Source: Ischnura elegans (lineage: Eukaryota; Arthropoda; Insecta; Odonata; Coenagrionidae). Taken from it: DNA of 64,000 nt. The DNA is taken from positions 38,359,644 to 38,423,643 of the forward strand of contig NC_060251.1 of NCBI RefSeq assembly GCF_921293095.1, written 5' to 3'. Numbering within the stretch: position 1 is the stretch's first letter; each line of letters begins with the position of its first letter. Made by a program: the position numbers and the translations under genes. The notes under the pieces were generated by a model. It did not search any database, was not told where the DNA came from, and saw only the letters and a list, made by a program, of their open reading frames with translations. Shown here piece by piece: positions 22,586 to 63,600 of this stretch.

Positions 22586-22744
22586 GGGAAACGTTACTCC
22601 ATTCAAAATCTGCTTCAAGTAAGTCACGGATAGCTCTATTCTGGCCAGGAATATACTCTCAAGGCTGCATCTTGAAACGGCAATGAGTGCAAGGAGCACA
22701 ATACAGACTGCCGCAGTGTTCATAGTTCCCCCTCCGGCCTTCAT
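22586..22744 (-). CDS. Orphan phospholipase B-like first exon (signal peptide)
   Basis: The minus-strand frame begins with a start at 22744 (or 22723) and reads a classic secretion signal, MNTAAVCIVLLALIAVS, then about 30 residues ending LKQILNGVTFP. It stops at a GT donor (gtaagt, 22580-22585). Exon 1 of the lipase gene at 44716-44868 has the same plan: signal peptide, then VLNGPSLP, then gtaag, both in phase 0. From the second ATG it is 138 bases, the same as the decayed copy at 46250-46387. I found no matching downstream exons between here and base 1. It may be an orphan exon, or the start of a gene whose body was replaced by transposons. Confidence 0.55.
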
Positions 22745-24887: not shown

Positions 24888-25530
24888 AAAAGATTTTATT
24901 AAAACTATCAAACTGGTGTGATAGGGATTATTTCTGTTAAATATACTTAAAATTTGATATAAATTACTAAGCATTTGATTTATTTTACCAAACGCTCTTA
25001 ATATTTTTCATCAAACAGTTTGATATTTCTAATTTGGTCAATTGTACGAAAGAGTTTGGTAAAAATAACTGAATTAATTCAATTCGATCCAGAGTTTGGT
25101 AACTTTTATCGAAGTTATGATTAATTTTACGAAGGTGCTTGCTTGTTTGGTAAAAATTATCAAACTCTACATTTTGTGCAAATTTGGTTTGAGTGAACTT
25201 ACTAAGGGTGCGATTCATAGGCGACACTGAAATTGCTCACTTTACAAAGTCTCTCGTTACGGTAAAGTGAGACTTTAGCTAAAGTTCGTTTCAAAGTCGT
25301 CCCAAGGATCTCACTTTATTAAGCGGAACTTCAGCTGCTTAAGTCTCGATCAGGCATTGAAATTTTGAGTGCTGGCAATGAACGCTGCGAAAAAATGAAG
25401 AAAAAGTCGACACGCGATATTAAACGCGTACTTGTTTACATGTTTCTGACGACTGGATTACCGAGTTGTATTTTGCAATCTGTTATTGACGCTGAGCATA
25501 AGATGAGGAAGACAGAGAAGGAAAAAAACC
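24888..25530. other. Copy-B-specific block rich in TTTGGTAA / ATCAAAC
   Basis: Copies A and C have different sequence here (A about 600-800). Between 24900 and 25205, motifs such as TTTGGTAAAAAT and ATCAAACT recur at least eight times in both orientations. The part 25206-25330 has GTGAGACTTTAGCTAAAGTT. This looks like a small non-autonomous DNA element joined to another repeat. The open frames in it are not conserved. Confidence 0.35.
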
Positions 25531-26724
25531 ATTTGGGAAGGAGCAATCCCAAGCTGTTAACAGCTACCACTCTTCCCACGCCACCTGCCTGCTCTTGGAA
25601 TTGCCCATAGCCAGTAATCATCCCATTGCCATCGGCCTTTTTACTAACTCCACTCTCCTATTGCCTTTCTTCCACTCCCTTAACTACATGAGCAAGGTAT
25701 TTCTAGAGGTATCTGCAATACTTCTGGAGGTGGTTGGGGAGACAATTTTGAGCACTTTTTTTGTTAATAAACATGGGGTCGAAACTTATCAGTAACTAAG
25801 CTATGGCAAAGCAGATATTTTTGAATAAAACTGCATTTACAATGTAAACGGTTTTTTTAAGTATCCAGCCCTTTCGAAATTTATACTCTGAAATTTTATG
25901 GTCATTAAATTATTAAGGTCGGACGAAAACGTGCCATTATTGTCTAAAACAATCTCAAAATGGGTGAAATTCTGCAATGATATTGTTGATACTGATTCAA
26001 AGCTCTCGCGTAATTTAGTTCAAAGAAAATTGTTTCAGGCAATTATATTAATACATTTTCGTCCAACCTTTATTATTTAATGTCCTTAAAAATCCAGGGT
26101 ATTGACTACAATGTCGAAAAGGCTGGGTACCCAAGATGATCCATTTTCATGGTAGCGGAAAATGGCATCCAAAAATGTTTTCATTTTCACAGCCCAGTTA
26201 CATGCACACGACAAACTGTGGATATTTTATAAAACCGATTAAAAAGCGTGCAAAGAGACAGAATTTATCAAGCATATTTGGGACGAACTGCGGTCCCCTC
26301 TATGTATTCCATCTGGCTAGAGCAACGTTGTGGGTAATTCATGAACGAAATAACGTTAAATTGCCCATAATAACCCACGGAGTTTGGGGTGCATCATTCA
26401 TCTTTTTATTCGCACCAATACGATATACCCCCTTACGTATAGTATACCGTAACCCAATTTTATGCTATGTCACCCGCAGGTGTAGCACTGAGGCCAGCCT
26501 TAGCTAGTGTGAATGAATTTTAAACATAGACTTGCAGTAGTGGCGAATTACACTAGATAAAATGGTAATATTTTTCGGATCCCCCCACTACTGCTGGAAG
26601 GTTACCCTCCAGGTCCCCTACCAAGCCCCCTCACCCTATGTCCCTATCTTGGAGCTGACTTGCTGTAATCTTTGTTCTTACCTATTTTTCGTGAATGAAA
26701 TTCCTTTTAAGTTTATCAACAGAC

Positions 26725-27713
26725 TAGAGCTGTGTCGGTCATGAATGAATCGTTCAAAATGAACGATTCAAGGGCATGAACCGAACGAATCTACTTTTTC
26801 CACTTGAATCCTTCAAAATGAACGATGGAAGATTCAAATCCTCCAAATAAAAATTGTCCAATAAGAACGATTTGAATTCGGTTTGACTGCGTTGATGCTA
26901 CCTATGAAAGGCGGTGAATCATCATTTGATTCCGACGAATGGCCATACAGGTTGGCAATAAAAATGAACTCTTCACCATGTTTACTATTGATCTGACTCG
27001 TAGAAATATTCGGTATGTATCATAGTGTGACGGAGCTAAATAAACACTGATTTTGCCGAATGTCATAAGAGCTTTTTCATGGATAAATCAGTGTTACAAC
27101 TATTCTTCAGACGATAACAGTGAAATGAAAATTCTTCAGGCACGGGAATTTTTTAGATGAAATTAAAATGAATTCTCCACTTTCACAGTTCAATGTTTTC
27201 ATAAGTATGAAAGTCTTTGACAAATAGTTGCATGCAATGGAACAGATAAAAATGCATGTAATCTGACGGATTGAACTAGTTTAAGGGTTATTTGCATTGA
27301 GAGTAATTGCATTTCACATTTAATTTATCGTGGACTACGTACTAATTTTGTATTGAAGAGAAGGAGGATGGCATTCATGGCATAACATTCAGACAGATCG
27401 AAGAGGTTTTATTGGCTGAAAGTAATTAATTAGAGATGCGTTTAAAATGAAAATTCATAATTACCGCGAATTTCTATCCGTCATAATATTTGAAATGCAG
27501 TAGGATGACAGATTCTCATGGATTCAAGCATGATATATTCATTACACTTACATATAATGTATTCTTTATGGATTCAGAATTCACGCAGTATGGAGATTCA
27601 CATGGATTCGAGATTCCCACGGTTCATTATGAACGATTTAAAGAACCGATTCATTGCCATGAATCAAAACCCATAAACCGAATCCACAGAATGAACCGAA
27701 ATTATCACCGCTA
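26725..27713. mobile_element. Non-autonomous hAT element, 989 bp, 8-bp duplication
   Basis: Flanked by CAACAGAC on both sides (26717-26724 and 27714-27721). The matching site in copy C (near 49615) reads TCAAACAGACTG with no insertion. The termini TAGAGCTGTG and TAGCGGTGAT (reverse) are short imperfect hAT-type inverted repeats. The ends are packed with GATTC / GAATC motifs in ATGAACGATTCA-like units, as expected for subterminal transposase-binding sites. There is no transposase; the 92-residue frame inside is not a gene. Confidence 0.85.
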
Positions 27714-29944
27714 CAACAGACTGCCTCTCTTTAATCTTTGTTATGATGGAAAAACACTTCTTCCTTGATGTCGAGTTAGCATAGATCTTCGTTTTATTGC
27801 CTGCTCATATTTAGATGTCCTAATCAATTTCTCCGTCCTTCGCAAACACTGTATCACTATGGACGCACTAAATCTTCCATTAGTTCCATAATATTTCGCC
27901 ATCCTCCTCCTCTTCAATGTCCCAGTAATTTAGCTCTGCATCTCCTTTTGATGGGTCACAGGAAGTGATAGCCTGGTTTTAATTAGAGAACAGTGTTTGA
28001 GTAAATGTTAAAGCGACATCTATCATAGGGAAAAGTTCTCTAGTATTCTATGTTCAGCTCTGGCTTCGGAACTGTGGCGCCATACGTACGAGTGATTGGC
28101 CTTAAAGCCATTATGATGTTACAAAATCTCCATTACCTCTTCCAATATGGTTACCTACGGCTTTTAGTGGTTAAATTGTCCAATAAAACTGGATTAGAAT
28201 AAAACGAAGGAAAGTAGATATTATTTTAGTCTTCTCAAGATGTATCACCTACTTATATAACTGTCTACTTATATAACTGTCGTTCTTTTTGGGTTTATAA
28301 TATACTGTTTGCATTTGAAGCCATGTTTTACCATTAATACTATTTTCATTGAAGCAACAGTACAAATTGCCAATAATTTCTGCATTCAGGCCTGTACATA
28401 CACGTTGACTCACCGATTGAAGGATTTAATTTTTTTCGCGAGATACAATTTAATAGTTTTTTATACAGGCGTAATAGTATTAACGTCCAATTTTTTAGCC
28501 TAATTTCATCTATCTCATACACTAATTTGACTTACCAAGAGTTAAGATTTGTATACAAATATGACTTTCGCTGACTGATATAGCCCATAATTACATGTAT
28601 TTATGCACGAGTGGTTCTCAGATAATATGGCAATCAATGAAACATGGCCAACTCCATTTCTCTTTCCCAGATTAGAATGCTCCATATTTAGGCGGTCAGT
28701 TATTTTCACTTGAACGGAAATGGGTTTGAATAATCGTTTAGTTTTCTTTATCAGCGTTGCAAATGTTTTAACGCATGAAACATTCTTGCCGTAATGAATA
28801 ATCCTAGTCCAGGGTTACCTTCTGTCCAATTCTTGAAGATATGATGCTTTTAAATGCATATCATAATGACTCAGAATTCGACAGCGAATTTTTAATTTTT
28901 TTCGGATTATTTTAATTTTTAGGAAAACAGTAATGGAACTTCGTTGAGCTGGAAGAATAACATTTTAAACATCTATAACGCTATCAATATAAGTTAAATA
29001 AGATCATTGCACGATCACGGTGTTCGTAAGTTAACTAACCACAAATGAAGGGTTTCGGAATTATTAAGTGAATTCACTCTATTCATGAAGTACGGTTTTC
29101 TGTAACTTTTATGAAACACAATGAAATCTTGCGAGTGATGGCTCCTTTCCGATATTCAAACCTGTTCGATAATAAGATAACCCTGAGCGAGTAATGATTT
29201 CGGCTCTTTCCGGTAGTTCTTAATCGGTTATTAAGAAGCGTGAGAGTTAGAAAAATCACTCTAGGCCATTTAACCCTCATTAGTAATGATAAATATTTTA
29301 TCTTGCCTTATAGTTGACCAACTCATTTTTCAAACGAAAAAACAGCAGAAACATCTTCGAGGCATTGCATACTTATAGGATCAAGGAAGCAATATAAGTT
29401 TAAAAAATGTACTTAACCTCAAAAAATTGTTATCAATGTTGTTAATACGGAACGAATTATAGCACCGCAAACGTCATTAGTATAATAATAGGGGATAAAG
29501 ATATCGTCTTGATCACTGGCCAACAAACCTAAGATTGGATTGACGCAGCTCTTCACCTAATTTTCCTATCGCATAATAGTTTCCCTTCAAAATCAACTGC
29601 ATTCAAATACGTAACCATCGAATCTGCTCGTTGACTGCTATGTTTACCTCAAGGGAAAGCTAACTGTGGTCCCCAGCGATTTTTGTTGAGACAGGCGAAG
29701 GAAAATTCAGAGGTGCGCGCATGATACCGTTGAATTCACCTCTATTCTTCGGTGTTCATCGCGAGTCATGCTCTAGGTTGAAGAAAACTCGGTGATCAGT
29801 CGCGTATTTGCTCGACGAAGAAAGGAAATGATTAGCCTCATTTGATTTTCCCTCACCGACCAAAGAATAACTACTCTCTGACAAGGAAAACCATTTTTGC
29901 GCGGAGCGATTGTTGTGATACTTTTCGGATACTTTTTTTCTTGT

Positions 29945-30890
29945 TGTTTGTTGGGGCCTTTATTGGAATACTTTTTCCCCAAAGTACATGGAGGACTTTA
30001 GGACGACAGCTTCAAAGAATCCCCCCTTCAAACCGTAGATGTTACTGCAATATGACAAGATCTTAATGCGGGGACACATCTGGGAAAAGCTGGACAAGTT
30101 CCAACCCTATGTCATGAGAATTGACTGAGACATCAAATTTAGTGAGGAAGTGGACAGCGGCGGGAAGTTGCCCTTTTTTAATACCCACATCACAAGAAGG
30201 AAAAATGGAACGTTTGGACACAATGAATGTAAAGAATAACTCATGCTGTTATCAGTGCTTTTGATTTAGAATTCTTGGCCGGTTTCTAAAATCCAGTATT
30301 AACTTGCAGTGTAGCCATGCTAACCGTCATAAAACATCTGTCACTAACCTGATTGGTGAAACTGGTCGTAATAGCTAATAAAGTTGTGTAGAGTTATTGC
30401 TGAATTATCAGAGGAAGCTTACCGAAAATAGTGGCGTTCCATAGCCAATTTTTTTTTGTGATGCCGTTAAATATTTTTGTATTTTTCTTTTGGCTGCGAT
30501 GGCTTTAGCCAATTATAGTAAAAGGGTAGGTCATCCTTAATCACAAGTACAGTATACAAAATCTTGGGACACACTGTGTGCCGAAAAAAAATAAAAAGCC
30601 GACGATCACCAACAGATATCTCCTTGCCGTATCCCATCTTCACCTAGCACAAATTAATCGATTGAAGACTGAAATTATCCATCAGTCCATCGCTGCCACC
30701 GTCGACGACCGCAGGGACGAAGAGCTGAATGAATTAATGAAAATACTTACGAGAATAAATATAAACGAAAAAAAGAACGACCATCCCTCAGATATTAAGA
30801 CACCAAAGCTCAAGTCTTGGAGAAGAAAATATCGAGGAGTAGAAAAAAGTCTTCCTACCATCCGTCAAAGGAATGACGAATAAACTATCC
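29945..30890 (+). pseudogene. Penelope-like element reverse transcriptase fragment (copy B)
   Basis: Duplicate of 6256-7190. The most intact stretch, 30578-30883, reads NRYLLAVSHLHLAQINRLKT and continues through IIHQSIAATVDDRRDEELNE, the region after the reverse transcriptase palm in Penelope-like proteins. Upstream GKLP-like pieces and a YVDD remnant are frameshifted. The endonuclease (GIY-YIG) part is not seen. Confidence 0.8.
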
Positions 30891-31344
30891 AGAATATTAC
30901 AAAGGTAACAGATAGAAACCGTGTTTGACAATTTCAGTGCCAGTCGCTATTTAAAAGCCCTTCCTAAAAATCCGGCCATTTTTACAAAATTCATTCTTTT
31001 TTTTGACATTAGTAGCAAAATCATATTTGATAGGATACGTGTTTTAATAAAATTTACTTTGCTCTTATTATTGAATGAGTAGAGTTAATTTTTTGCTGAA
31101 TTTTAACTTTGTCATGTGGCTATGAAAAACTACGGTTTTTTTAAGTTGAAACAAATCATCTGCAGCCATCAAATACACTTTAATTATTTATGGTGCTCAA
31201 TTTGAAGTATGGGATTAAAGGAAATCATAGTGTTGTTCTACATGTAACATTACGTACATGTCAATTTTTAGAAAGTATCGGAGGCTTACGGGAGCAGCTG
31301 TGTGTTACGCTTTGTCGAGGGAGCTTTCGAGGCCATTGCAGGAG

Positions 31345-31411
31345 GCATCATCAGGCGATCCTAGGTGCCATATATTTTTCATCGCCTGATGATGCAACTT
31401 CAATGGTTGCA
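31345..31411 (+). repeat. Perfect 15-bp stem-loop with hammerhead-like core (B)
   Basis: GCATCATCAGGCGAT (31345-31359) pairs with ATCGCCTGATGATGC (31381-31395) around 21 bases. CTGATGA at 31386-31392 is followed by a second hairpin, TGCAAC-TTCAATG-GTTGCA. The copy A version has changed on both sides of the stem. See the Penelope context; the GAAA part of a true hammerhead core is missing. Confidence 0.4.
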
Positions 31412-31929
31412 GCAGCTCACTTGACAATGCGTAATACAAAGCTGCTATCGAAAGACTCCGATACTAATGATTCTCGCTGCGAAAGCCTGTTTTCAATCAC
31501 GAATATTACAAAAGAGTATTCTCAGTCGGCCTGTGTCGTCACAAAGCGTGTATTTAAATGGGTTTGCAAAAGTCGCCACTCGCGTCGCTGGTGGACAAAT
31601 TAATCAGAATTCTACGGGAAAATAAGGTATAATTAGGAGTATTTACCAAATTTGATATTCCTTATGATATGATTTCTCAAATTGATAACTTTTCAAACCT
31701 GTTCCTCGCAATTACACAATTATAAACACTATACAGCATAATATTGAAAAAAAGTGGATTGTAATGCATTCATCACCGACAGGATATTTTTTGTAAGCCG
31801 ATTAACATGAGACCGAAGTTGTTTTTGCTATTAAAAAGTGACATCTTAATCAAAGTCTTTACTACCATGCGTATGCATGAAATGCAGTTTGCTGCTGATC
31901 ATCAACAAAGGTATAAAGTGTTAAGAATG

Positions 31930-36600: not shown

Positions 36601-39600
36601 GGAGGAGGAAGCACTTTTAGTCTGTAATATTAACTTAGAATATTTCAAATAAAAAATGCACACGAATTACAAATACGCTTTTCCAGAGTTATTACTCGGG
36701 AAGATAATCGGGAGCGACGACACGCACTGTTACTTCACAAATCAAAGTAACAGAACTTACAAATTCAATTGTGCAGGAAAAGTACTCGCGAAGAAATTCG
36801 GGAGCGTCGACTCATACCTTACTTGCTTGAGCGTTCTTATGACCCCTAGAGCTGCACTGGCGAGATTAATTCGCAATTAATCTCGGTAGGGTCACCCATA
36901 CCACATAGGTCGAAGAGTAGGATCCAGACGAAAGGTAGGCCACGTGATGGTGCCACAAGAAAAACACTGTTGGAATGGAAGTGGGAAACCCTACCAATTA
37001 TCTCTTCCCTGAAAACGTGGTGTTTGGTCAAACGAGCCTCGGGGTCTTCGTGGTCCTAATCATGCGAAGTCCTTGCAGAGACATATCATTATCACCTATT
37101 TCAGCATAAGCAGCAGCAATCAAGGATAAGGACAAGAAGACCAAGAGAATGGAGAAGAAGAAGGCATCGGTGAATGTAGGGACGTGGAACGTGTGGACAA
37201 TGAGTGCGGGTAAACTATAAAATACAAAAAGGGAAATGCAGATAGGGAGGATAGATATCTTAGGATTATGGGATGTGAGGTGGAGGGATGGGGGGGGGGG
37301 ACTATTGGAGTGATGGGTATAGGGTTATACATAATGGAGGGGAGGAAAGACAGCGCTTTAGTATTAAACGGGAAGATGGGTAGGCGTGTGGTAGGCATAG
37401 ACCAGGTAAGCGATAGGATTCTGATGGTAGAAATTGAGGCGCGGCCCACCAACCTTGTGGTGGTCCAAGTTTACATGCCCACTAGCAATCATAGGGAGGA
37501 AGAAGTAGATTAGGTGTATGAACAGCTCGAGGAAATAATTAGAGTAACTCCGGTAAGAAAATCTGGTAATGATGAGGGACTGGAACGCTTCAGTCAAGGA
37601 AATGAGGGATGGAAACGAAGTAGGAGAATTTGGATTAGGAATTCGGAACTACAGGAGTGACAAAGCAGCAGAATTTTGTAGGAGAAACAAATTATTCATC
37701 GTAAACACGTGGTTCAATCTTCATAAAAAGCAGGCGTTCAAATGGAAAAGTCCAGAGGATATTGGGAGATATCAGACAGACCACATTATGGCAAGACAGA
37801 GGTTTAGGAATAGTGTGAAAAACTCGCGCAGATTCCCTGCAGCGGATGTGGATTCAGACCACAACCTAATACTTATGAAATGCAACGTAAGATTCAAAAG
37901 ACTCATGAAAGGCAGGAGGGTGAGGAAATAGAATGTAGAAGCGCTGAAGGGGAGTATGAGGAGAGAATATCAGGAACTTGTTGAAAAATGTACCCGGGAG
38001 ATTGAAAGTGCACAGACTGTTGGGGAAAGATGGGATAACATTAAAACTGGAATAGTCAAAGCGGCCGAGAAGTCAATTGGTTACGTTGACAGTAAAAGGG
38101 TAAAGAAGCCGTGGATAACGGAGAAAATGACGAGGGAAATGAAGGTGGGGAGGAAGTGAAAGAACATAAACAAAGAACAGGGAAAAAGAATTTATATACT
38201 AATTAATAATCGATTACAGCGTGAACTTAATTGAACCAGGAACACTTGGTAAAATGACAGTGTGAGGAAATGGAAAATTTTCAGAAGGAAGGAGAGGTAG
38301 GCACATTGTACGCCAAAGTTAAGTCGCTATCGGGTGGCAAAAGGGGGCAGGGCCATGTCTAAAGTTAAGGCTAAAGATGGAAGGATGCTAAGCGAGCGAG
38401 AAGAGGTACAGAGCAGATGGAAGGAATACGTGGAGGATCTGTATGACGGGAGGAACAGGCCAGAGAGATTAACTTTAGAGGAGGATAATCGTGGGCCGGA
38501 GATCTTAGACTCGGAAATCGAGAGAGCAACTCGTGATATTCATCCCTAGAAAAGCAATGGGCGTGGACAATATCCCATGATCAGTTTGGTTTTATAAAAG
38601 GGAAGTCAACTCGTGAAGCAATAGCGGTAATGAGGTCCCTGGTGGAGAGTAACCTAGAATATGACCAGGATGAGTATGCCTGCTTTGTGGATTTTGAAAA
38701 AAAACATTCGATAGAATGAACTGGGTAAAGTTAATGGACATTCTCAAGAAAATCGGTGTAGATTGGAGGGTGTAACGTCTGATTTTTGAAAGTTGTTATT
38801 TTGGTTGTGAAGGGTTTGTTTGGGGAGAGGGGATTGTTGAGAGAGATGTGAAAAGGAGAGGTTTTGTGGAGTATTGTGGAGAGAATTGAAGGAAATAAAA
38901 AAGGTACTGAAAATTAATCGTCTTACGTTACAAGGGATAGACGACTGATTCGTAATCTGTATATGGCCCAGACTACGCAAATGAGGGTAGCGGACGAAGA
39001 ATATGGGTGGGCAAGAATGGGCTGGGGAGTGAGGCAAGGCTGTCCTCTATCGCCGCTACTCTTTAACGTGTACGCTGAAGAGATGGTATGACAAGCGTGA
39101 GATGAGTTAGAAGATAGAATAAAAGTGGGAGGAATGATGTTCAAACAGGTGAGATTCGCGGATGATCAGGCGTTGATTAGCTAGTCAGCGAGGTGGCATC
39201 AGGCTCTAGTAGATGTGTAACGGAATCACCCGCAATTCACAAAATTTGCGAAAAATCTCCAGAGAAAAATTCATTCGCCTTGAACGAGATTCGATTCTTT
39301 AGCCAGTTAAGCTACCCGAGGTGTCATTATACCCTGTGGAAATTTGAGGACTATACATGACAAGGTGGTTTTGACTGCTGGGCATATTAATTGCAAGCAG
39401 TTAAAATCGTGCGCAGAGCGCCACAACCGGAGAGCGCGAACTTACGTAGTTAAAAGCGAATGAATGGTCTCCAATGTAGTTAGAGAAAACATTCTTCTGC
39501 TTGAAAAAATTTAATGAGTATGAGGAGAAGGAAATATAGAGAAGTGAAAGAAGTTAGGTGGAAGAAGTGTGAAAATCAGAGGGCAACTGTGAATTAGACA

Positions 39601-45349: not shown

Positions 45350-46021
45350 CTACAAAAACTATTTTGAACAGGCAAAATTGATATTTTAGCTCGATAAAAT
45401 ACCTAAATTTTCTCCATTCATCATAAAAAGAAACAAAAAATTGACTTCAACATTGAGAAATATTTCTGTGATCCGACCACTGCGCGAAGACACCTGAGCT
45501 CTGCCGAAGCTAAGCGTGACATAGGTGTCTTAACTGTCATCGGGAGTCGGGAAATACTCTGAGCGTATGCTGTAAACATTGTTTTAAGGGAGGACTTATC
45601 CGCTCATTGTCACTTGTGTATGTGCTGGTATCCTTGGTATGTTTTGCTATTGCTATTTTGCCACGATTATTACTTGAGATACTGAAAATGCGACATCAGG
45701 ATGATGAAGTACAAGCGTTTCACTTCGTATGTTTCAGTTTTCAGAAAAATAGATGATAACATTGCCGCTCGTTTCAATAGTACACCTGAAATTCATCTAC
45801 ATCTACATACTAACACGCAAGCCGCCTAAAAGGCGTGTGGCAGAGAGAGTTATGACACCAGCCTTTTTTTAGGACACCAAAAATGCCACGACCTCCATGG
45901 AATTTGTTATGACAAATTATTGCTGTACGGCGGCGAAAAATCGAGATTTAAAAGAAACCTGTAATACTGGAGGAGAACGATCGTGAACTTACGAGCCGTG
46001 CTGTTGAATTTAGCAACGCTG
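45350..46021. other. Gene-free stretch with a common arthropod repeat
   Basis: At 45790-45860 CATCTACATCTACATACTAA followed by CGCAAGCCGCCTAAAAGG and GTGTGGCAGAG resembles a widespread arthropod repeat. The rest has no recognised feature. Confidence 0.4.
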
Positions 46022-46140
46022 TACAGTGGACGAAATTAGAAAAAAAGTTTGACAAAACCCTAAATTTTCACAATGTTTCTGGAAAACAAAAATGGTATAG
46101 TCTGATAGTGTTATGTCTGAGTATCTATTTAAACATTTGG
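46022..46140 (+). mobile_element. Transib-like terminal fragment
   Basis: TACAGTGGACGAAATTAGAA, then AAAGTTTGACAAAACCCTAA, TTTTCAC and ATAGTCTGATAGTG, parallels the left end of the Transib at 58531 (CACAGTGGGCGGAAATCGAA, then AGCTGGCCAAAACCCCAA, TTTTTCAC). It is diverged, with the first heptamer base changed to T. The remainder of the element is not seen; copy C begins about 60 bases later. Confidence 0.55.
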
Positions 46141-46249
46141 TTTATCGATGGTGTCAGCGGAAGCCGTTGAAATTGATAAAAAGTAGTGAAATTCCATTTC
46201 CCCATTCATGCAATCATTGTCCCACTCAATCTTTCCCAAAGTCACTTAC

Positions 46250-46387
46250 TGTAAACGTTACTCCATTCAAAAACTGCTTCAAGTAAGTCACGGATAGTTA
46301 TATTCTGGCCAGGAATATACTCTCAAGGCTGCTTCATGAAACGGCGATGAGTGCAGGGAATACAACACAGACTGCCGCTGTGTTCAT
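46250..46387 (-). pseudogene. Decayed lipase exon 1 copy
   Basis: Reads MNTAAVCVVFPALIAVS then a stop where the 22586-22744 copy has Arg, with a second stop about 11 codons later. Length (138 bases) and the gtaagt donor are kept. It lies 1.4 kb upstream of the intact exon 1 at 44716-44868. Confidence 0.75.
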
Positions 46388-47224
46388 AGTTCCCCTTCCG
46401 GCCTTTATTTGTGATGAAGACTGGTGCCCTGTTAAGTTCTTTTTAATAACCCTCGGGCGGGCTCTTGTGTACCAGCTCATACAGATTGGTTATCGTTCAG
46501 GTCAATATCGGCCCCATTTGTTTTCTTACCCGCAGGTGACCCAAAATTTCTTACCTTATCCTCTCCATATGTATCGCGAGTATTTGGAGCGTAACAAAGA
46601 AAACAGAAATGATTTGCAGGTAATTATAATGCATTGACAACTCACTGGTTCCCTTCCTCTTGCATACAATTATGATAATTCCTCAAGCTACCAAACAGCT
46701 ACTCCAATGTCACCATACGCTCTGATATGTTTGATATTGTTTTCTTCCATGGGAGATATGCTCCTGTGAACAACCAGTGGTCATTGCTGTACTAGAGGCA
46801 ATACGAAATCAATGGGCACATTAAGTGAATGGCAGTCATATTCTACTGTGATTGAAATGGTTATTTCTGGAAACTTAATGCCAAACTAACAGGAATAAAA
46901 TTAATTTTTTTGAGCCTGTCAGTAGTCTCTAAATAAAATGCTTCATATAAAACGAAAAACGTTAGCCACATGTTCTTCTATGACACTCAATTTATTTTTT
47001 AAATAAATGCAGTATCTGATATATGCACGCTTACTGGAGTAGCTGCAATTGAGGTTAATAGTAGAACACGAGCCCAACGTTATTCGTTGCATATGAAGCA
47101 ATTAATTTGGAGACTGTTAGGCGCATAGAAAATTTTAATTTTTACTTTAAGTGCGCGAGATAAACGGTGTTTGTTAAAAAATATATTTTTATGGTGTAAT
47201 GGTACTTCTTTCGATGATAATGAC

Positions 47225-47450
47225 ATTGCGAGATGTGGGGGTGGAGAAGAATGGAGAGGGTGAAGTGGACGGAGAGGAGGAGGGAGGACGAAGTGCAGGA
47301 CATGGTGGGTGAGGAGAGGTAGCTTCTAAATGAGATACAGATGAGACAATGTATGTGTGGAGGGAGTAGGTACTTAGTTGGGAGGAGATGTTGAAAACGG
47401 TGTTAGAGGGTATAATGTTAGGTAAACGAGGGAGATGAAGGAACGGACAG
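47225..47450 (+). mobile_element. Non-LTR 3' fragment (copy C)
   Basis: Same fragment as 236-450, sharing with it the junction GGGAGATGAAGGAACGGACA, which B lacks. Confidence 0.75.
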
Positions 47451-47799
47451 TATTTTCTCACCCTGCATATGTTTCTCAATTATAAAACTCTCGTCGCGGT
47501 TTACACACTTTCTTAATTACTTTACGTCTATATTTTACTATAATACCCTTTAGCTATTGCAACCTTAACGTATTAACTTAGTGCACGTACGTAGTTTGAA
47601 GAAGATAACTTATCTTGAAGATAATATTTGGGAGTAATGTATTTTGTTTGCTTCGGTTTTCACGTCGATACAGCGTTCGAAATTTATTTACTCAACCACG
47701 CGCTGCATTTAAAGCTGATAAAACGGAAAATGTGTCGCAGTATTCATTATGCGTGCAAAGGGGGGAGAGTGCGAGGGATAAGGAGGAATAATGACAAGA

Positions 47800-48045
47800 A
47801 GTTTGGACCTTGGGGTGGGGGTGGAGGCCCTCGGGTGACATGACTTAGTGCGAGGGCTACACGCTCAGAGACAGAGACAAGGGGCAGTGTTCGGCGAGAC
47901 ATCAACCGAGAAGCATCTATTCTGTGATGTGAACCATTTTTATTTGTTAATACATTCCACTAAGTATGTTTACGGGTTTTTCATTTCATTAAAGTTACCT
48001 CCCTTGGACAAGTCGGTTTGAAGACGCGTGTTTAATATCGAACAC
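47800..48045. mobile_element. Copy-C-specific insertion of ~240 bp, LTR-like
   Basis: Copy A (about 818) runs from TGACAAG directly into GAAAAAAACC, while copy C has about 240 bases between. The insert ends near ATCGAACACAAGG and holds CATTTCATTAAAGTTACC. ACAAG occurs at both edges, which could be a 5-bp duplication. A solo LTR is possible, but TG...CA ends do not line up with that duplication. Confidence 0.3.
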
Positions 48046-48399
48046 AAGGAAAAAAAACATTTGGGAAGGAACATTCCCAAGTATGTTAACAGCTACCCCT
48101 TTTCCCCACTCCACCTGCATGCTCTTGGAATTGTCCGTCGCTAGTACTCATTCCACATCCATCGGACTTTTTACTTATTCTACTATCCTATTACCTTTCT
48201 CCCACACCCCTTTTTCTACATATGCAGATTATTTCAGCAGGAATCCGCAATACTTCATGAGGTAGTTGAGGAGACAATTTTGAGCAATTTTTTTCATGAA
48301 TATGGGGTCGAAACTCCTTAGTTATTGAGCTATAGCAAAGCAAACACTTTTAAATGCACTTTGAAGTTACCTTGAGAATGGGGTTTCTTTGGTATCCAG

Positions 48400-48860
48400 C
48401 ATCACAAAAGGTGAGATTTCAGCAATTATATTGTCATTCAAAGCTCTCGAGTAATTGAGTTCAGAGATAATTGTTTCAGACAATTATAATCATGAATTTT
48501 TGTCCAACATACATTATTTAATTTCCTTATAACACCATAAAATTTACGATTACAATTGCCTAAAACAATCTATCTCACAATGGGTGAGATTCCGCAATTA
48601 TATTGTCATTCAAAGCTCTCGAGTAATTAAGTTCCAAGAAATTTTTTCAGACAATTATAATCATACATTTCCGTCCAACCTTCATTATATAATGACCTCA
48701 AAAATCCAGAAAATATGCGATTAAAATTGTTTGAAACAATTAATCTCACAATGGGTTAGATTCTACAATTGTCATTCAAATCACTTGTGTAATTAAGTTC
48801 AAAGAAAATTTTTTAGGCAATTAGAATCATACATTTTCGTCCAACCTTAATTATTTATGT
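48400..48860. repeat. Local triplication of a ~190-bp unit in copy C
   Basis: The segment (A/G)TGGGT(G/T)AGATT, then CATTCAAAGCTCTCGAGTAA, then CAATTATAATCAT, occurs three times head to tail with about 180-195 base spacing. Copies A and B have it once. A related piece also lies in the second lipase gene's intron 4 (62920-63015). Confidence 0.6.
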
Positions 48861-49833
48861 CCTTATAAATCCTGGGTATTAATTACAATGTCGAAAAGAC
48901 TGGATACCCAGGAAGATCCGTTTTCATGGTGACTGCACAGACCATCCAAAAATATTATTTCGTTGCCATAGCTCAGTTACTAAAGAAGTTGCGACCCCAT
49001 GTTTATGCACAAAAAATGCTCAAAATGTCTCCCCTACCCTCTCCTGAAGTATTGCAGATTCTTCCTTCAACACCCTGTATACATACATACGACAAGCTGT
49101 GGATATTTTATAAAAGCGATAAAAATGGAGCGAAGAGACAGTATAAATGAAGCATATTTGGGACGCACTGGGGTCCCCACTATGTAGTCCACTTGGCCAG
49201 AGCAGTGTGCTTGGTAATTCATGAACGAAATTACTATGAATTACCCATAATATCCCACGGAGCTTTGAGTGCAGCGTTCTTCTTTTTCTTCGTGCCAATA
49301 GGATATGCATATACCAATACGATATGCCTCCTTACATACAGTATACCGTAACCAAGTTTTATGCTATGTCACCCGCAGATGTTGCACTGAGGCCAGCCTT
49401 AGCTTTTGTGAATGAATTTTAAAACGCAGACTTGCAGTAGTGGCTAATTATACTACATAAAATGGTAACTTTTTCGGACCCTCTCACTACTATTGGGAGG
49501 TTTCCCTCTAGGTCCTCTACCTAACCCCCCACTCCATATCCCTATCTAAGTGCTGACTTGCTGTGATCATTGTTCCTACCTATTTTTCGTGAATGAAAAT
49601 CCAAGCTTATCAAACAGACTGACTATTTTAAATCTTTGTTTTGATGAAAAAAACACGTCTTTCTTGATATCGAGTTGGCAAGGATTTTCCTTTTATTGTC
49701 TGCTCATCTTTAGATGTCCTAATCAATCCCTCCGTCCTTCGCAAACACTCTGTATCACTATGGACACACTAAATCTTCCATTAGTTCCATAATATTTCGC
49801 CATCCTCCCCCTCTACAATGTCCCAGTATTTAA

Positions 49834-52389
49834 CCCATTGGCTTAGTATTTTTTGAGCGTTTCCCTTACCGAGGATTACGATTTATTTCAGCCAAATTCT
49901 TTAAATGAATAATATTTTTTATCTACGTATATAATGTTGCTATTTACTTGAAAATTTCACTTAACTACAATGAAACAATTTCGAACGTTATTTAATTTTT
50001 TGTTACAAGAAGTTTGAATTTACAAAGCGATATTATTAACAATAGCAAAATTGTAACTTTTTACAACAATTGTTGTAATAATGCAACAAAGTGAAATTTC
50101 GAAGGTAAAATTGGAAAAAGTAATAGTGGTACGTGTGTTTTTATAAATATTTCTTTTTAACAGTGATCAAATCACTTATATGGAAACAATCAAACGTTGA
50201 ATTCATTTCAGGAAATCTGTAAAAAAAATTTTGACTTATCAGTTCCTTGAGTGAAAGTTGCCATCATACTTTGTTTTTATTCGTATTTAATGTTAAATGT
50301 ATATTTCTGGTTGGTAGGTACTCTGAACAATAATATAAACTAATACTATTTAATGTAAATTTCGTTATCTTCATGGTTTTTTGGTATAAAAATCCTTGAA
50401 GCATTCGGGTATTTGAAGAGCAACACAGCTCTGCTCACACTCCCTCCGACTTTCACTATATTTCAAACTGGAGACAATATCCTGAGGAACTTTCACAAAT
50501 GTTGTAAAACTTTATCCAAAATCTATCTCTCTTGTTGCGGTTTTACTTCTAAAACTAAGTCTGCCTTGAGACTTCATAAGGCTTTCATCGACAGCAAGAT
50601 TTTGTGAAGGGCAATATATATATAGACTGAAATTTTTTGTTCACTTACTGAATGATGGGAGAAATATTTCTTAGCCTGTCATTTTCATCGAGAGTTGAAT
50701 TATCAGTGAAATGCAAAAATTTAGACAGCAATAGAAAGCGTTGATAGGGCATTACTTTACCGAAGAAAGGAGTTTCAGTGACCGCTCGCGGACTCCAATA
50801 CTTTTGAATTTTATTTTTCTTCACCTGTGCCATCAAAACACACAATGCAAAATATGCTCGTAATTCTTCAGAAGTGGTTGGAAACCATTCGCCCATCAAA
50901 CTACTTCTGCGATTCATCGCTGCATTCAAAAACGTTTCAGCAAATCTGGTGGTCTCTTGGCAGATCAACTCCCAAAAGTCAGGTTGCAAAAAAGCGTAAA
51001 AAATAATCCCGTTCATTGGCATTTTCCGGAAAATGCCGAAGCATTCTCGAGTTCATGCCAGGTGCACCACAAAAATTAAACTTTTTCACGAGGTTATTAC
51101 ATGTATTCCACATTCAGCTGTCTTCCTTTACTTTTTTTCTTTACTGGTTGACGCTCAACCTCTTCTTCACTAGAGTCCTCGCTACCTGTCTCACAGTCCG
51201 CGGTTTCATTGGTGCTCCCCCGCTCATCGGACGAATCTTCATCACCACTACCTATACTATTACTGTCAAACAGAGCATTCTCGATATCGGTACTCTCACA
51301 GTAATTCATTTTTCTGCTTGCCATTTTCGCTAGGAGCACAAACACCGACGAAATAAAGCCTTACGTGCTTCCGAACTGACCATCTGAATGCCAAACCCAG
51401 GGTTTATATAGCCGTAGAGAAGAGAAGAATGTCTTACAATGTGATTAGTTCTGATAATGTAACGTGAGCAACAAAGGTCTGAGTAAGAAGCAAATTGATA
51501 AAAAAGCTAACGAAAACAAAGTAATTGCTTCTCACCAATTTTCAACCCAGAAAAGAAGGTTCTCAAATAACTGCGTATTATATTACCAGAGACATGAATC
51601 CGATATCAAAACACAATTGTCAGCTAAGTATAAAGAAATAAAACACCTGTATAAGGATCAGGTTAGGCACCTGCAGTGGAAGTGAAACACAACACTACGT
51701 CAGCATTGATAGTAAACCGATAGGTGATTTTGAAAGGGAGACGGGCCTCTGCGGCCATCTGCGGGAGAAAGAGAGGTTCATAATCCGAAATGAACTGCTC
51801 ACTTGCAAGGCAATAATACTAAGTGATTCGTGAAATTGATAACTAGACATTACAAAGTAATATCATTACAGCCGTTTGTCGGTCATGTCATGCACGCACG
51901 AAGCCAAATTTCAGTCATTTCAATGGGTGCGTCTGAGTCCACGAAAACGAAGTGGTCTCGTTTATGTGTCCTTCTTATCGTCAGCAGAGATGAATAGACA
52001 GTCAAAAAATTGCCTCCGATAAATACTAAAGGTAATCACTTTGAAAAAAATTGCATAAACAGTGAATAATAAGTGCCTATGAAAGGCAACGGCTAGGCCT
52101 TCATCTGTGAGGAAAAATAACTGGCGGAAAGACGCACCCCTAAAAAATGGCAGTTATACATTTCGAGGTAAAGAGTAAAAATACCGAAAAATGATAGCTG
52201 CAAATGCATTTGACCTAAAGAACAATGTTTCTGTGATACAAATGTTAAGATTTCATCCAAATATTTTATTTCGTTAATTAATTAGGCGTGTTGAAAGACA
52301 GCGCTGCATTCAACCGGCGAATCGCCGGCTCTTTAGTTTACGGCAAAGTCCCGTAGGCCGGCGAATCGCCGTCTCTTTAAGCCAATGGG
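49834..52389 (-). mobile_element. piggyBac element, 2556 bp, TTAA duplication
   Basis: Flanked by TTAA (49830-49833 and 52390-52393). Copies A and B have CAGTATTTCAG / CAGTAATTTAG with no insertion. Inverted termini CCCATTGGCTTA begin with the CCC typical of piggyBac. The right subterminal part repeats GGCGAATCGCC palindromes with GCTCTTTAG / GTCTCTTTAA. The transposase is read on the minus strand and is broken. Confidence 0.88.
50410..51324 (-). pseudogene. piggyBac transposase, truncated and frameshifted
   Basis: Minus-strand order: an acidic Ser/Glu-rich N-terminus from MASRKMNYCES (about 51324) to a Lys-rich VKKKSKGR; then 51022-50645 with the family domain (FWELICQETTRFAE, YFALCVLMAQVKK, RFLLLSKFLHFTDN, DRLRNISPII). 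Then AVDESLMKSQGRLSF (about 50600-50560), holding the first catalytic Asp at 50587-50589. A frameshift and stop follow within 25 codons. The remaining catalytic Asp residues and the Cys-rich end are missing, so the element is inactive. Confidence 0.85.
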
Positions 52390-52643
52390 TTAAGCTCTAT
52401 ACCTCCTTTTGATGGGTCACAGGAAGCGATGATCTGGTTTTAATTAGAGAACAGTGTTTGAGTAAATGTTAAAGCGACATCTATCATAGGGAAAAGTTCT
52501 CTAGTGTTCTATGTTCAGCTCTGGCATCGGAACTGTGGCGCCACACGTACGAGTGATTGGCCTTGAAGCCGTTATGGTGGTACCAAATCTCCACGGCCTC
52601 TTCCAATGTGGTTACTTATTGTTATGGTTTTTAGTGGTTAAAA

Positions 52644-55540: not shown

Positions 55541-55696
55541 TACCGCTTTGCGCGGCTTTAGCGCAGGTATGAGGCTCTCAACCGGTTGTGGCTTCTTGGA
55601 AGTCCTTTCTCCCTCGCGTTGCCATCCTTGATGGACCGCGAGGGCCTAACACCTAGTACCATGAGCCTCGGTATTATTGCCATGAGAATTAAAGAA

Positions 55697-55838
55697 CCTG
55701 GATAGCGTAGTGGTCTGCGCAGTGGCCCGGAAAGCCAAAGTTCCGTGGTTCGATTCCCGGTCCAGGGGAATTTTTCTCATGGCAATTGTTGTATATTTCA
55801 CCGCCGTTCACGCGGCAGGTTTAGAAATATTACAAACG
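55697..55838 (+). mobile_element. tRNA-derived SINE with complete head
   Basis: The head 55697-55766 begins CCTGGATAGCGTAGTGGTCT and ends GGTCCAGG. Its first and last seven bases pair as an acceptor stem, and GCGT/GCGC can form a D stem. Tail as in the other copies. The T-arm pairing is imperfect and three copies share a conserved tail, so this is a SINE and not a tRNA gene. Confidence 0.75.
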
Positions 55839-57654: not shown

Positions 57655-60600
57655 CTAATAAGCAATTTAAATACCATTTAACGCTTAAAGCAATGAATGA
57701 TGATAGGATTATTAATTTTAAAAACTACGATAAGCTATTATGATTGTTGTCTCCGTTTCCGGTTTCATAAACGTTTATATTTCTTTAGGTCTAAATTCTT
57801 AATCACAGGAATGCATTTTTGCATTGTTTTTGGAATAATTGGTTTTCCTATTTTTTTTCAAATAAATATGAATTCTTTACCCTTGTGAATTATTTAAGAA
57901 GGGAATAGGTAGCAATCTTCTAAAATTACCTGTTGCCAATCCTCTTTGGTTCAGATGGAAGCACTCCTTCGTCCAAATAGGAGGTCTCTCCTTCAAATAT
58001 CGTACAAGTTGTGGATTTTCTGGCTCGCCTAATTTAGTTGGACCGTTGAGAATCGCAGGAAAGGGTTGAAAAGTCACGGCAAAATCTTCTCTGCCCTCGT
58101 ATCTTCCACTTAACGTCTTTAAGAAAGAGACGTAGAGATACTCCTTGGTATGAACGAGCATTTTTGTGACAGGACACTGTATATGACATATACCATGTGT
58201 GAGAAAATTTTATGGAAAAAGGTGCTCCTCTTTCTTAAATATAATGTTTCTTAGGAGAATTCCTCAGTGTGGAAAATTAAGTGGTTAGTAAAATTTAATT
58301 ACCAAGTACTTCGAAGTGTCTTTGAAACTTTCCCAAGAAAACAGCGACGTATACTGGGAGGAGAAATATTTTGTCGCGAAATTGTGATCCTGGTTAGCCG
58401 ATGCCAGCGAATGATGGTCCATGGGGGTCATGTTGAAGAACACAACACAACGGAACCCAATGATTCAATTGATTTGCCTGGAAAGCCGAGGAGGGGAATG
58501 GAGTGGGGGGAATGAAGGATGGAGGCGCCGCACAGTGGGCGGAAATCGAAAAAAGCTGGCCAAAACCCCAATTTTTCACTATTTTTTTTAAATCCAAAAG
58601 TTACGTAGTATTGTTCTAGAATGTCTAGACACCCAAATACGTTAACTTTTTAAAATTTATTTATTCTCTTTATATGTGTAATATCCTTCGAAAAGCGATA
58701 AAAAATCGCGAAGTTCCAAATCTACGTTTTTTTAAAAAAATCTCTATGTTTGCTGCCCTGGTGTGTGAACAAAACATAAATATTGTTCTATTGGCGAATA
58801 CAAAACGATAATATATATCTTTTAGATACTATAACGCTATTCATCGTGGAAAACAAGACTTTCCGAATGGCCATAATATATTAATTAAAAATTAACTGTT
58901 TTTCGTTCAAATTTTAACTAAATCAGAGATAAACTTACTTATCTCCGCTTATCTCCGCGGAGATATTATCATCAACAGTTAGAGCGAGGTTTATTCTATG
59001 TAACGGAACGATAAAATCATGCGCATACTTGCAACTTTTCCACTTTTGTTGATAAATGTAAAATAACGCACGGCGCGTAGCGGAGCGGCGTCGCAGCGCT
59101 CGGAACAGAGGGTGTTCTGATTGTCTAATTCTTTGGAAAACTAGGATTGTAATCACACTGGCCATTCACTTTGCATTTTTCACATATTCCCTTGAATGCT
59201 TTTTGGGCGATTCCCAGCAACTGCGTTTTAATCCTTTCCTAGAACTCCGCAGTGTTCAGACCCTGTCCGCGGTTCACCCAGACGGCAATAAATAGCCCTT
59301 ATCACTGTCCCTTGCCGTCTTTTGTGTACCGCGGCAACTGGTTCCTGTGCGTAAAAGCTTCTAGGGGCACGTGCAAGGAGTATTGGTCATAAAGTGCATT
59401 TTCCTAAAATTAATTCCTGAATATTGGTTACGAGTGGAGGCCTCGAGGAAGACCATTGACGCTTTTTGAGAGAGCAAGTGATAGGTCCAAAAGAAGAAAA
59501 ACAGAATGATGTGAGAAGCAGCACTTCGAAAAAAGAATTATGTGTGGCAACTTCAATTCAGTTACGTGCCACAGGAGATGATGCTGCAGAAAAAAATATT
59601 AAATTAGCAACAAAAATCACACCAATCAGGGCCAAGAGAATACTTGACAAATGGAGAAGGAAATAAATAGCTCAATCAGAATTATCGGGGGAAGAGGCTA
59701 TTTCCCTTATTGTAACGGGCCATCTGACAAAGACGCAGTATATATTAATTCGTGAAATGGCGAGAAAACATGGCCACAAAATATACCCAAGTTACGACCA
59801 AATCAGTTTGGCAAAAAGTGCAGCATATCCTGAGGGATATCTATTTCTGAAGAAAAATGTGAAGTTAACTTGCAGTCTCTATTAAATCACACAGCCTCTA
59901 GAATAATATGTAAATGGGGTTTTAAGGGAAGTTCTGGCCATTCCCAGTACAAGCAAACATGTGAGACTCCTAATGAAAGATACGAAAGCTTGTTCGCGAC
60001 CTCTCTTGTACCACTACACTGTTAAACACCATATCAGGTAAGCACATTTAGAAATAGTAGAAATAGTAGTATTAGCACCACGCAACGTTCACATTCTGAA
60101 ACGTAAATAATAGTTTTTTTGATACAGGAAAATCTTTATCCTCGCCTCGTCTAATCCTCGCCCATCATCGACCAGATTTTGTCGAACAATAAGAATTCGA
60201 TGGACCCGAGTAACGAGAGAGGTTTCCGTGGAAGAAGAAAGATATATTAATTAGCTGATAAAGAACCTTTGACCAATTCAGATCGAAATTATTTTGGTGA
60301 CTTTCAAATTATTGCTTACAAATATTGATGGAAAGATATGGCATATAAAGATAATGATAATAACTCGTTTTTATCAATTATTTACTCTTCAATTTATATC
60401 TAAATTCTTTCATTGCTTGGTTTTGTAGGCATGCTATGCATTGGCAGAAACGAGCAGCATGAAACGCTATCTGTCAGCTGCAAATATATGAGGCTGTATT
60501 TACTAAATATTGTTGTTCCACGGCCAAAATTTATGTCAAAATTTATTCGTGGTTCTATATGCCACCTACTGTGCATTAAGTTTTGATTCACGGTGCGGCA

Positions 60601-63600
60601 GTTATTAAGGACGCAAGTATTCGTATTGGCCAGCTTTCCGAGGAGGCTTTGGAAGCAAGGAATAAAGATATTCGACGATTTAGAGAGCATCACTCGCGAA
60701 AAATAGCCATACTAGCCACTAATCACGAACTTTTTCACGGAATACTTCTTACGTGCGACCCATATATTTCATCTACTCCAAAATTTGGTAAAAATACAAA
60801 GAAGAATGTACCTGAACTAGTCAGAAAACTTCCTTTGACGAAGAAATTGATTCAGATGCTGAAGATGAAGATTCAGGATCAGATCTGGGTTTTGACTTTT
60901 CATGCGCCTAATTGATTTTTTATCGTTAATTTTACTAAATTGTGTTCGTGAGAAAGTATTAAACTGCTAATTCGTATTGAAAATAGAAGACTTATGAAGT
61001 AAATATCAAAATATTACACTGATGGAAAAATATTTGGGGTAAATACCAAAAATTAGCAACCCATCTGATGACGCAAAAACGGCCTCTCCGTCATTTTGTT
61101 TTTAGATCATCTTCTTGTAGAGATAGAGTCCCAAAAACACTAAAATTGGATTCTTCAGATCAAAAACTTCTAGAATCACCACAAATTAGCCATAAATTAG
61201 CCAAAAATTCTTCCACAGAGGTTTAGGCCAGCTTTTTTCGATTTCCGCCCACTGTGCGCCGCCGCCATAGGAGCCCGTCGACGCCTCCCGGAGAGGATGT
61301 TGATGATAGGGTGTGATAGGGAATACCCGCGTTGTCATTGAGACAACGGGGCCATCTAATAGTGATACCGTTACATGATTTACCGACGAAATCTACAGAT
61401 TTTTTTATGAGGAGAACAACCATTGGTCATTTCAATGGATAGATATATAGTTGGATAGCTGATGCCAATAGGTACCCAAATTACCGATGATGTATCGGTC
61501 GAAAACGCAACATTTCAAACTACATAAACTTTGAGGAGTTCAATCAATTATAGAGAGGAGAATCAATTATAAAATAGGGAAGAGTATTGTTTAAGCGTTA
61601 AATTCAAGAAAACGTATAGACACAATCGTGCTAAAAGGAGATCCAGGATAAGTGCGGTACGTTGAAAGGAATGACATTTTAGTTGGGAATCTTAGAATTG
61701 AATTAAACGATAAATGGTTGGATAACAATTAAATCTACTGTACTTGTACAGATATAGTACGTAATTCGAGTGGGTTAGCTGTTAGCAGTGCATAATCTTT
61801 GACTGTGACCCTAAAAATAATCGACAAAAATGTCGTAATGAATTAAATAACAGTCAATAGCCATATCTTATCGGAGAAAGACGAGTAATATAAAAACAGA
61901 GCACTAACATGAATTTTACGGTACGAGTAATTAGGAAATAAGTTAGGATAGGGATCCTTGGGTTATTTTGGAGTTGAAATACCTTTTGCTATCACTCAAA
62001 ATTGGAAATGCTTGCCAATGCTATGTCCAGCATGGAAGAAACTGTCTAACCATTACAAAGCTATACTGCTGCATAGGTTAGATATAGTGTGTTTTTATTC
62101 TTCTATCATCTCTCTCTCAAACCACAAATTCATCACAGGAGTATCAAAGGATTCAACTGGTTACACTTATTGCGAAATTCAAGGTTTTAAGGGAGAGTTT
62201 GAATTTTCATGTTGCTACACCCTTTGTTGACTGAAAGGGTGAATAATTAGTTTTTTTAAGTCAGCCAAGAATATAAGAATATTAAAGCATGCATTTGAAT
62301 TCGAGTGAAGTAATGCCATATGCCTTAAATTACCATGCAAAAGGAAATACTAAATTACCAGTTCTTCTTCAACTGCCTGATACTCTCGGACTTGTGAACT
62401 AATGTTGACCTTGGTCACCTCAATATTAGGGCTAATATATAAGCAGGAACAGAACACACGACGAATAACTTCGCATGTCAATGAACTTGGAATCCTCGCC
62501 GAGATAGTTGGATCTGGAAAATGGAAATAGTTCAGATGTTGAGCCATCGTTTCAGTGAGTGATCCATGAGGTACGGTGCAAGCCAAAACCAGGAAGTATC
62601 GTAATTCTTCACAATTCCAAACCAGGCATGCAGCACTCATCCTTCATCGGAAACGCAGGCGTTCGCCGGATACAGACTAAGCATGCCGGACAACGACACA
62701 CGGTCAGGCCTGAAACTAGGAGAGTCTAAGGACACGAACATGCAACCATGCATATAAAACTAAATGTTAGTAATGGAAAAAAGGAAAAGCTAGCATAGTA
62801 AGTGATTCATGCATGAGTTATAACATATGGAAAATTCATGCAGATAGTTATTAGGTAGTGACAAATATAATGAGTTATTTGTTAGAGAGGGAATCTGCAA
62901 TATTTCAAGGGTCTGAAACAATATTAAAATTCGTGAGATTGCGCAATTCTATTAATGATAATCACTCAAATCTCTCGTTATTTTAAGCTCAAAGATTGTT
63001 TCAGACAACGGTATTGTAGGGGTATTCCAACGTTATTTTTAAAATTGACTGTAGTAGTCTCCAAACTCGTTAGAAATTTAAATATTTAGCTCCCGTTATT
63101 TTGTGAATACATCACGCACACATTTCTGGAATGAGAAGAAGGATATAAATACTGAAAATAACGTTATAGGAATTCACTTTCCCCTGAACTATACCGCTTG
63201 TCATAAATAGAACAAGATGCCAACTGATGTTAACGATAGCACATATGTTAAAACATTTGAACTGAAATATTATGATTGCTTACTTTTTCGGTAATAGCAT
63301 ATCTGTTAAAACATTTTTACTAAAATTTATGAAAATTTACTGTCTTGGGAATACCACAAGTTGCACTAATATTTTTTTTCAAATTTATGTTCTTGCTATT
63401 ATGGTTCATTTTTTTGCTGTAGCATTTTTTAATTTTTTTAGTTAGGAATACAAGAGAACGAAACATTTTCATATCCTGAATTGGAACCAGTCTCACCTAA
63501 AATTGAAAGCAGGTTTACGTACAACCTGGGCACATGTTTGTACAAGTAGTCCAGCGCTTTTTGTAAGTGGAGAAAATGCTGTCGAGAGGAGTGCTTTTCT

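What the first reader, a model, noticed from the sequence alone, without database searches (positions are those of the whole stretch)
58531..61256. Transib with exact V(D)J-like CACAGTG termini and RAG1-like remnants inside a lipase intron
The 31-base identical inverted ends begin with CACAGTG and the 5-bp duplication is CGCCG on both sides. The C-terminal transposase piece parallels the RAG1 catalytic Glu region. Ends this well preserved around a dead transposase suggest recent mobilisation in trans by a still-active relative. The match to the heptamer is exact, where Transib ends usually only approximate it.
Basis: partly seen in the sequence, partly recalled or inferred. Interest (0 to 1): 0.75.

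Follow-up and report, generated by a model that had tools for sequence, protein, structure and literature searches.

The report
Dead Transib transposon copied by relatives
This is one copy of a broken "jumping gene" of the Transib kind, the group related to the enzyme that shuffles antibody genes; its own enzyme has been dead for a long time, yet copies kept spreading, most likely moved by an intact cousin such as one found elsewhere in the same genome.

Summary
Window 58531-61256 is a 2,726-bp Transib element with perfect 31-bp inverted ends (CACAGTGGGCGGAAATCGAAAAAAGCTGGCC) and a CGCCG target duplication. Its coding pieces match HzTransib transposase (E 1.6e-26) and no other transposase in the PDB. 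It is no lone fossil: the 31-mer occurs 1,760 times in the 1.72-Gb source genome at up to 2 mismatches, backward control 0. In 18 aligned copies one premature stop is shared by 18 and another by 16, across groups about 9-11% apart. The family was therefore dead before it amplified and was moved in trans. A relative on C3 has an open, spliced, DDE-complete transposase (N-terminus and left end not reached). It is 99.35% identical to a second copy elsewhere, and its right TIR matches this one at 30 of 31 bases. Related empty sites span the insertion point. The exact RSS heptamer is a family trait, and a review already says some Transib ends carry identical consensus heptamers. Verdict: a well-supported new member of a known kind.

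The parts
58526..58530 (.). left copy of target-site duplication, CGCCG
   Evidence: 20 copies examined, 19 with identical duplications, 16 of those CGNCG
58531..61256 (+). non-autonomous Transib element, 2,726 bp
58531..58561 (+). left TIR, begins with CACAGTG
59432..59837 (+). remnant of transposase exon 1, N-terminal part (in-frame stop at 59664)
59813..60016 (+). remnant of exon 1, second part in another frame; 18 codons missing against the C3 relative; first catalytic Asp replaced by Lys at 59924-59926
60150..60335 (+). remnant of exon 2; stops at 60252 and 60270; second catalytic Asp kept at 60327-60329
60432..60488 (+). first 19 or so codons of exon 3; the rest of exon 3 and exon 4 not found
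60478..60852 (+). remnant of exon 5; stop at 60577; catalytic Glu kept at 60652-60654
61226..61256 (-). right TIR, identical to the left one
61257..61261 (.). right copy of target-site duplication, CGCCG
58480..58530 (.). left half of the dispersed repeat that received the insertion
61257..61321 (.). right half of the same dispersed repeat
62350..62643 (-). open frame read as holding an upstream exon of the host gene (phospholipase B1-like, name recalled)
   Evidence: no family hit
57877..58209 (-). open frame read as holding the next exon of the host gene, which would place the element in an intron
   Evidence: no family hit

Best explanation
A non-autonomous Transib copy. Its ancestor lost the transposase gene (premature stops, loss of most of exon 3 and of exon 4, and in the young group the first catalytic Asp) but kept ends that a Transib transposase recognises. 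A transposase made by an intact relative binds the CACAGTG ends, cuts next to the heptamer by the nick-hairpin route known for HzTransib and RAG, and inserts the element into a CGNCG-like target with 5-bp duplication. Here the target was a GC-rich dispersed repeat, probably inside an intron. Shown here: the anatomy, the duplications, related empty sites, shared stops across copies, and a relative with an open DDE-complete reading frame and a nearly identical right end. Inferred: that this relative (or a sister) is the enzyme source, and the chemistry.
For: TIR and TSD. HzTransib matches along the element in order. 20 copies read whole (window + 19): target duplication identical in 19, CGNCG in 16 of those 19. 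Stop at 60270 in 18 of 18 aligned copies, at 60577 in 16 of 18, at 59664 in 13 of 18, at 60252 in 4 of 18 (L024 and L030 were left out of the alignment). The 60270 stop is shared by four copies that differ from the window by 9-11%, so the family spread after that stop arose. Closest pair 0.3%, window's closest 0.7%. Empty-site query: 40 scored of 1,186 candidates; 2 are the window's own halves, 38 lie elsewhere at 79-92% and span the junction without a large gap. Relative: 574-aa open spliced reading in L092 with all three catalytic positions, HzTransib E 6.4e-122; 99.35% identical over 2,753 bp to L091+L090, with CGCCG against CGACG after the right end. Right TIR 30 of 31 to the window's; chance of that at the 67-75% identity of the coding DNA is 6e-5 to 2e-3.
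Against: The left end and the N-terminal start of the open relatives were not reached, so they are not proven complete elements. Their exons are only 53-65% identical in protein to the remnants, so a closer autonomous parent may exist or have existed. The second copy (C9) goes out of frame near the end of exon 4 in the same splice model. The 60577 stop is absent in L036 and L039 although their close kin L038 has it, so its history is not simple. No expression or activity data.
Confidence: 0.88

Rival explanations
1. Each copy was inserted while its own transposase was intact and the copies decayed afterwards in place (no trans mobilisation).
For: Some stops are not shared by all: the 60252 stop is in 4 of 18, and the 60577 stop is absent in L036 and L039.
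Against: The 60270 stop is in 18 of 18 aligned copies and the 60577 stop in 16 of 18; exon 4 was not found in the three copies tested, window, L023 and L038; near-identical copies (0.3-2.6% among 14) at unrelated loci.
Confidence: 0.03
2. The relevant enzyme is an unseen closer autonomous copy of this same group, and the roughly 55%-identical open lineage has nothing to do with it.
For: Transposases usually serve close kin best (general knowledge); only the best 150 of 3,132 protein candidates were scored and few were read.
Against: The closest 15 protein matches are the window and 14 copies read whole, none with an open frame above 111 aa; the right end of the open lineage matches at 30 of 31.
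Confidence: 0.35
3. The element belongs to another superfamily with 5-bp duplications.
For: None found; but only the PDB and Pfam were searched with the remnants, and Pfam has no Transib hit even for the open relative.
Against: Remnants hit only HzTransib at meaningful E-values; the CGNCG target fits the motif given for Transib (PMC4735498, passage).
Confidence: 0.01
4. The copies spread by segmental duplication or repeat amplification rather than by transposition.
For: The window does hold triplicated ~24-kb segments, and L033 and L039 share 324 bp of flank at 95.7%.
Against: Own duplications in 19 of 20 copies; in an all-against-all comparison of the 20 joined sites only L033, L039 and the window align junction to junction, and L033 and L039 hold elements 9% apart, so they are separate insertions; no second copy of the element in the window.
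Confidence: 0.02

Closest known systems
HzTransib (Helicoverpa zea Transib; PDB 6pqn and others)
   Same: Homologous transposase along its length; DDE residues; TIRs and 5-bp duplication (3,518 bp, TIRs, 5-bp TSD: PMC1852546, passages); symmetric ends resembling the RSS heptamer (PMC8289069, passage)
   Different: HzTransib has an open 489-aa product and is active in vitro (PMC6941560, passage); the window copy is a pseudogene, and the open relative here has at least five exons. HzTransib's reported duplication is GCTCG, not CGNCG
Transib superfamily, incl. hopper and transib2 of Drosophila
   Same: 5-bp duplications (PMC3276498, Table 3 passage); GC-rich palindromic target
   Different: Drosophila hopper prefers CCANTGG; here CGNCG, the motif given for Transib insertions from moths in PMC4735498 (passage)
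RAG1/RAG2 and ProtoRAG
   Same: CAC-start ends; this TIR starts with the consensus RSS heptamer CACAGTG (PMC8289069, passage); nonamer-like 7 of 9 at spacers 21 and 22 on the left end, 6 of 9 at spacer 21 on the right
   Different: No RAG2-like gene seen, and none specifically searched for; near-identical symmetric ends; protein similarity of the open relative to RAG1L only E 0.04

Membership tests
Transib superfamily | transposase homologous to known Transib transposase | tested here: met
   open relative 6.4e-122
Transib superfamily | 5-bp, GC-rich target duplication (CGNCG) | tested here: met
   19 of 20 copies have identical 5-bp duplications, 16 of those 19 CGNCG; 13 of 20 further left flanks CGNCG
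Transib superfamily | TIR starting with CAC, resembling the RSS heptamer | tested here: met
Transib superfamily | D-D-E triad | tested here: inconclusive
   window copy: Asp2 and Glu kept, Asp1 replaced by Lys, as expected of a pseudogene; all three present in the open relative
Non-autonomous transposon | copies share the same disablement yet are dispersed | tested here: met
RAG-like (RAG1L-RAG2L) transposon | RAG2-like gene in the element | tested here: inconclusive
   no open frame above 111 aa in the window element and none hinting at RAG2, but no RAG2 profile search was run and the open relative's 5' part is unread
RAG recombination signal | 12/23 spacer asymmetry with nonamer | tested here: not met
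   the two ends are identical over 31 nt. In the tested spacers 11-13 and 22-24 the best nonamer match is 7 of 9 at spacer 22 (left; reached by 1.6% of shuffles) and 6 of 9 at spacer 11 (right; 7.6%). Spacer 11 gives 6 of 9 at both ends, and spacer 21 (7 left, 6 right) lay outside the tested set

The most novel reading that the evidence does not exclude
A Transib family whose transposase died before its groups split (9-11% ago) has been kept mobile by a transposase lineage whose protein is only about 55% identical, because the ends alone are held to a shared 31-base sequence containing the exact RSS heptamer: long-term parasitism of one RAG-related transposase by the ends of another lineage, in a genome with about 1,760 such ends.
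Probability: 0.4. Interest if true: 0.45.

Novelty: new member of a known kind. Interest (0 to 1): 0.27.

Why it matters
It gives a matched pair in one genome: an open, recently moved, intron-containing Transib transposase gene and many dead elements with almost the same ends, which carry the exact V(D)J heptamer. That is a usable natural test of which end bases a RAG-related transposase really needs, and of how dead elements keep using it. As biology it is otherwise ordinary transposon behaviour.

Tried and rejected
Own-decay after insertion: rejected by the stop shared in 18 of 18. Other superfamily: rejected. Empty site in the window's own paralogous 24-kb segments: the joined flanks match nothing else there; replaced by related empty sites, in which I did not check base by base whether CGCCG stands once. 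Pfam does not recognise the remnants or the open relative. Host-gene naming by Pfam, NCBIfam and PDB failed. Extended palindromic target (A at -7, G at -4): clear in the 19 sites where it was first noticed (23 and 27 of 38 half-sites, both strands summed). In 20 independent left flanks it is 11 and 12 of 20. After dropping 4 similar flanks it is 8 and 9 of 16, p 0.03 and 0.02, with the four-letter chi-square not significant there (0.09, 0.11; the lowest, 0.01, is at -1). I keep it as a hint only; palindromic target motifs are general for such elements (PMC3276498, passages). Literature: seven searches, of which I saw the listings, and passages of seven papers (six of them cited here), showed none on this family. 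The library lacks most subscription papers and the main 2005 Transib paper, so absence from print is not claimed.

Full report
Observation. The window holds a 2,726-bp element at 58531-61256 with identical 31-nt inverted ends starting CACAGTG and a CGCCG duplication. At up to 3 mismatches these ends occur only here in the window. The inverted repeat extends outside the element to 49 nt at 94% because the target itself is nearly palindromic.

Kind. Translated pieces hit one solved protein well, the HzTransib transposase: 2.9e-16 for 60580-60912, 5.7e-5 for 59667-59882, 1.7e-7 for 59834-60022, 1.6e-26 for the stretch read with X at stops. Pfam has no hit. HzTransib catalytic residues are D126, D225, E436 (PMC6941560, passage). 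By alignment the window copy has Lys at the first, Asp at the second and Glu at the third. Among 18 aligned copies the first is Lys in 14 and Asp in 1 (3 gaps), the second Asp in 16 and Glu in 1 (1 gap), the third Glu in 18.

The family in the source genome. G000 is 1.72 Gb in 110 contigs. The first 170 bases give 40 scored matches of 476 candidates, 16 of them (window included) at 98-100%. I read 19 further copies whole. Target duplications are identical in 19 of 20 copies including the window; in L022 one extra base separates end and duplication. Of the 19, 16 are CGNCG and 3 are CGCCT, AGACG and CGATG. Of 20 further left ends, 18 carry the exact 31-mer, 19 the exact heptamer, and 13 have CGNCG. 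Copies were found by their left end, so left-end conservation is partly by selection. The right ends were not so selected: 18 of 19 fetched copies have CACAGTG there. The 31-mer with up to 2 mismatches occurs 888 + 872 times, backward control 0; I count 79 exact matches in the listing, which shows only the first places.

Dead before it spread. The longest open frame is 111 aa in the window copy and at most 124 aa in the 19 other copies. With exons of an open relative as guide, the window keeps parts of exons 1, 2, 3 and 5. Exon 4 and most of exon 3 were not found in any of the three copies tested (window, L023, L038). In 18 aligned copies (L024, a 919-bp short form, and L030, with a large insertion, were left out) the stop at window 60270 is in 18, that at 60577 in 16, at 59664 in 13, at 60252 in 4. 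The alignment holds a young group of 14 (up to 2.6% apart) and four copies 9-11% from the window. The 60270 stop is thus older than that split, and the copies moved afterwards without an enzyme of their own. The 60577 stop is absent in L036 and L039 but present in their kin L038 and in L037, so that one is not a clean marker.

An open relative. A protein search of the genome scored the best 150 of 3,132 candidates, and 150 match. The closest 15 are the window and 14 copies read whole; the next rows, apart from the short form L024, are 39-83% identical and include open frames of up to 194 aa without a stop inside. The copy on C3 (L092) reads through five exons, GT-AG at each of the four introns, as one open 574-aa stretch to a stop codon, with CKWGFDGSSGHS, LLTMIDGK and SEEALEARHKD. 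Its N-terminal start was not reached; in C9 an open upstream exon is seen. It matches HzTransib at 6.4e-122 over residues 3-460 of 497, and amphioxus RAG1L only at 0.04. The C9 copy is 99.35% identical over 2,753 bp and is followed by CGACG where C3 has CGCCG, so this lineage moved recently; the C9 copy is out of frame at the end of exon 4 in the same model. The right ends match the window TIR at 30 (C3) and 29 (C9) of 31, while the coding DNA of C9 aligns with the window at 67% and 75% in two stretches. The left ends were not reached.

Site. The joined flanks (111 nt) hit a dispersed repeat: 40 scored of 1,186 candidates, two of them the halves of the window site, 38 elsewhere at 79-92%. All 38 span the junction and 25 of them reach query position 105 or beyond. 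These are related empty sites. L033 and L039 sit at the same position of the same repeat. The insertion lies between minus-strand frames that look like exons of a phospholipase B1-like gene, a name I recall and could not confirm.

RSS likeness. The heptamer match is exact. A nonamer-like 9-mer matches 7 of 9 at spacers 21 and 22 on the left and 6 of 9 at spacer 21 on the right. In the shuffle test, limited to spacers 11-13 and 22-24, the left best (7, spacer 22) is reached in 1.6% and the right best (6, spacer 11) in 7.6%. Symmetric Transib ends with 20-22 bp spacers are described in PMC8355894 (figure legend passage), and identical heptamers in some Transibs in PMC6941560 (passage). This is known territory.

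Mechanism and verdict. The best reading is a non-autonomous Transib family mobilised in trans. The anatomy, shared disablement, related empty sites and existence of an open relative are shown; the identity of the enzyme source and the chemistry are inferred from HzTransib.

Noticed in passing
window 46021-46091: A degenerate Transib-like end (75% to element bases 2-69, TACAGTGG...) about 12 kb upstream, probably an older relative.
   Followed up: no
G000 contigs C1-C8 and C19, rows: Eleven Transib transposase pieces with the same alignment (52%, query 3-84, 102-aa frame) all lie within 4.2 Mb of a contig end, as if part of a subtelomeric repeat (contig lengths).
   Followed up: no
window 1-9700, 22500-31600, 46200-52600: Similar blocks repeat at about 24-kb steps, up to three times, 60-94% alike, probably a tandem gene family.
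   Followed up: no
window 50645-51052, minus strand: Remnant of a piggyBac-type transposase (PF13843 DDE_Tnp_1_7, 2.8e-23).
   Followed up: no
window 13356-16371 and 37214-39165: Two inverted copies of what looks like a non-LTR retroelement; the frame 13356-14156 matches reverse transcriptase (PF00078, 1e-8; inverted repeats).
   Followed up: no
window 55696-55768: tRNA-Ser (gga) match beside a 71-nt 97% inverted repeat (55328-55398/55728-55798); likely a tRNA-derived repeat.
   Followed up: no
L033, L039, window flanks; left flanks of L046, L048, L056: Several Transib copies landed at the same point of one GC-rich dispersed repeat, a possible insertion hot spot (L046, L048 and L056 judged by eye).
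   Followed up: partly
L091 (G000:C9), upstream of the transposase exons: A 157-aa open upstream frame ending at a GT donor, apparently an extra N-terminal exon in the open lineage.
   Followed up: no
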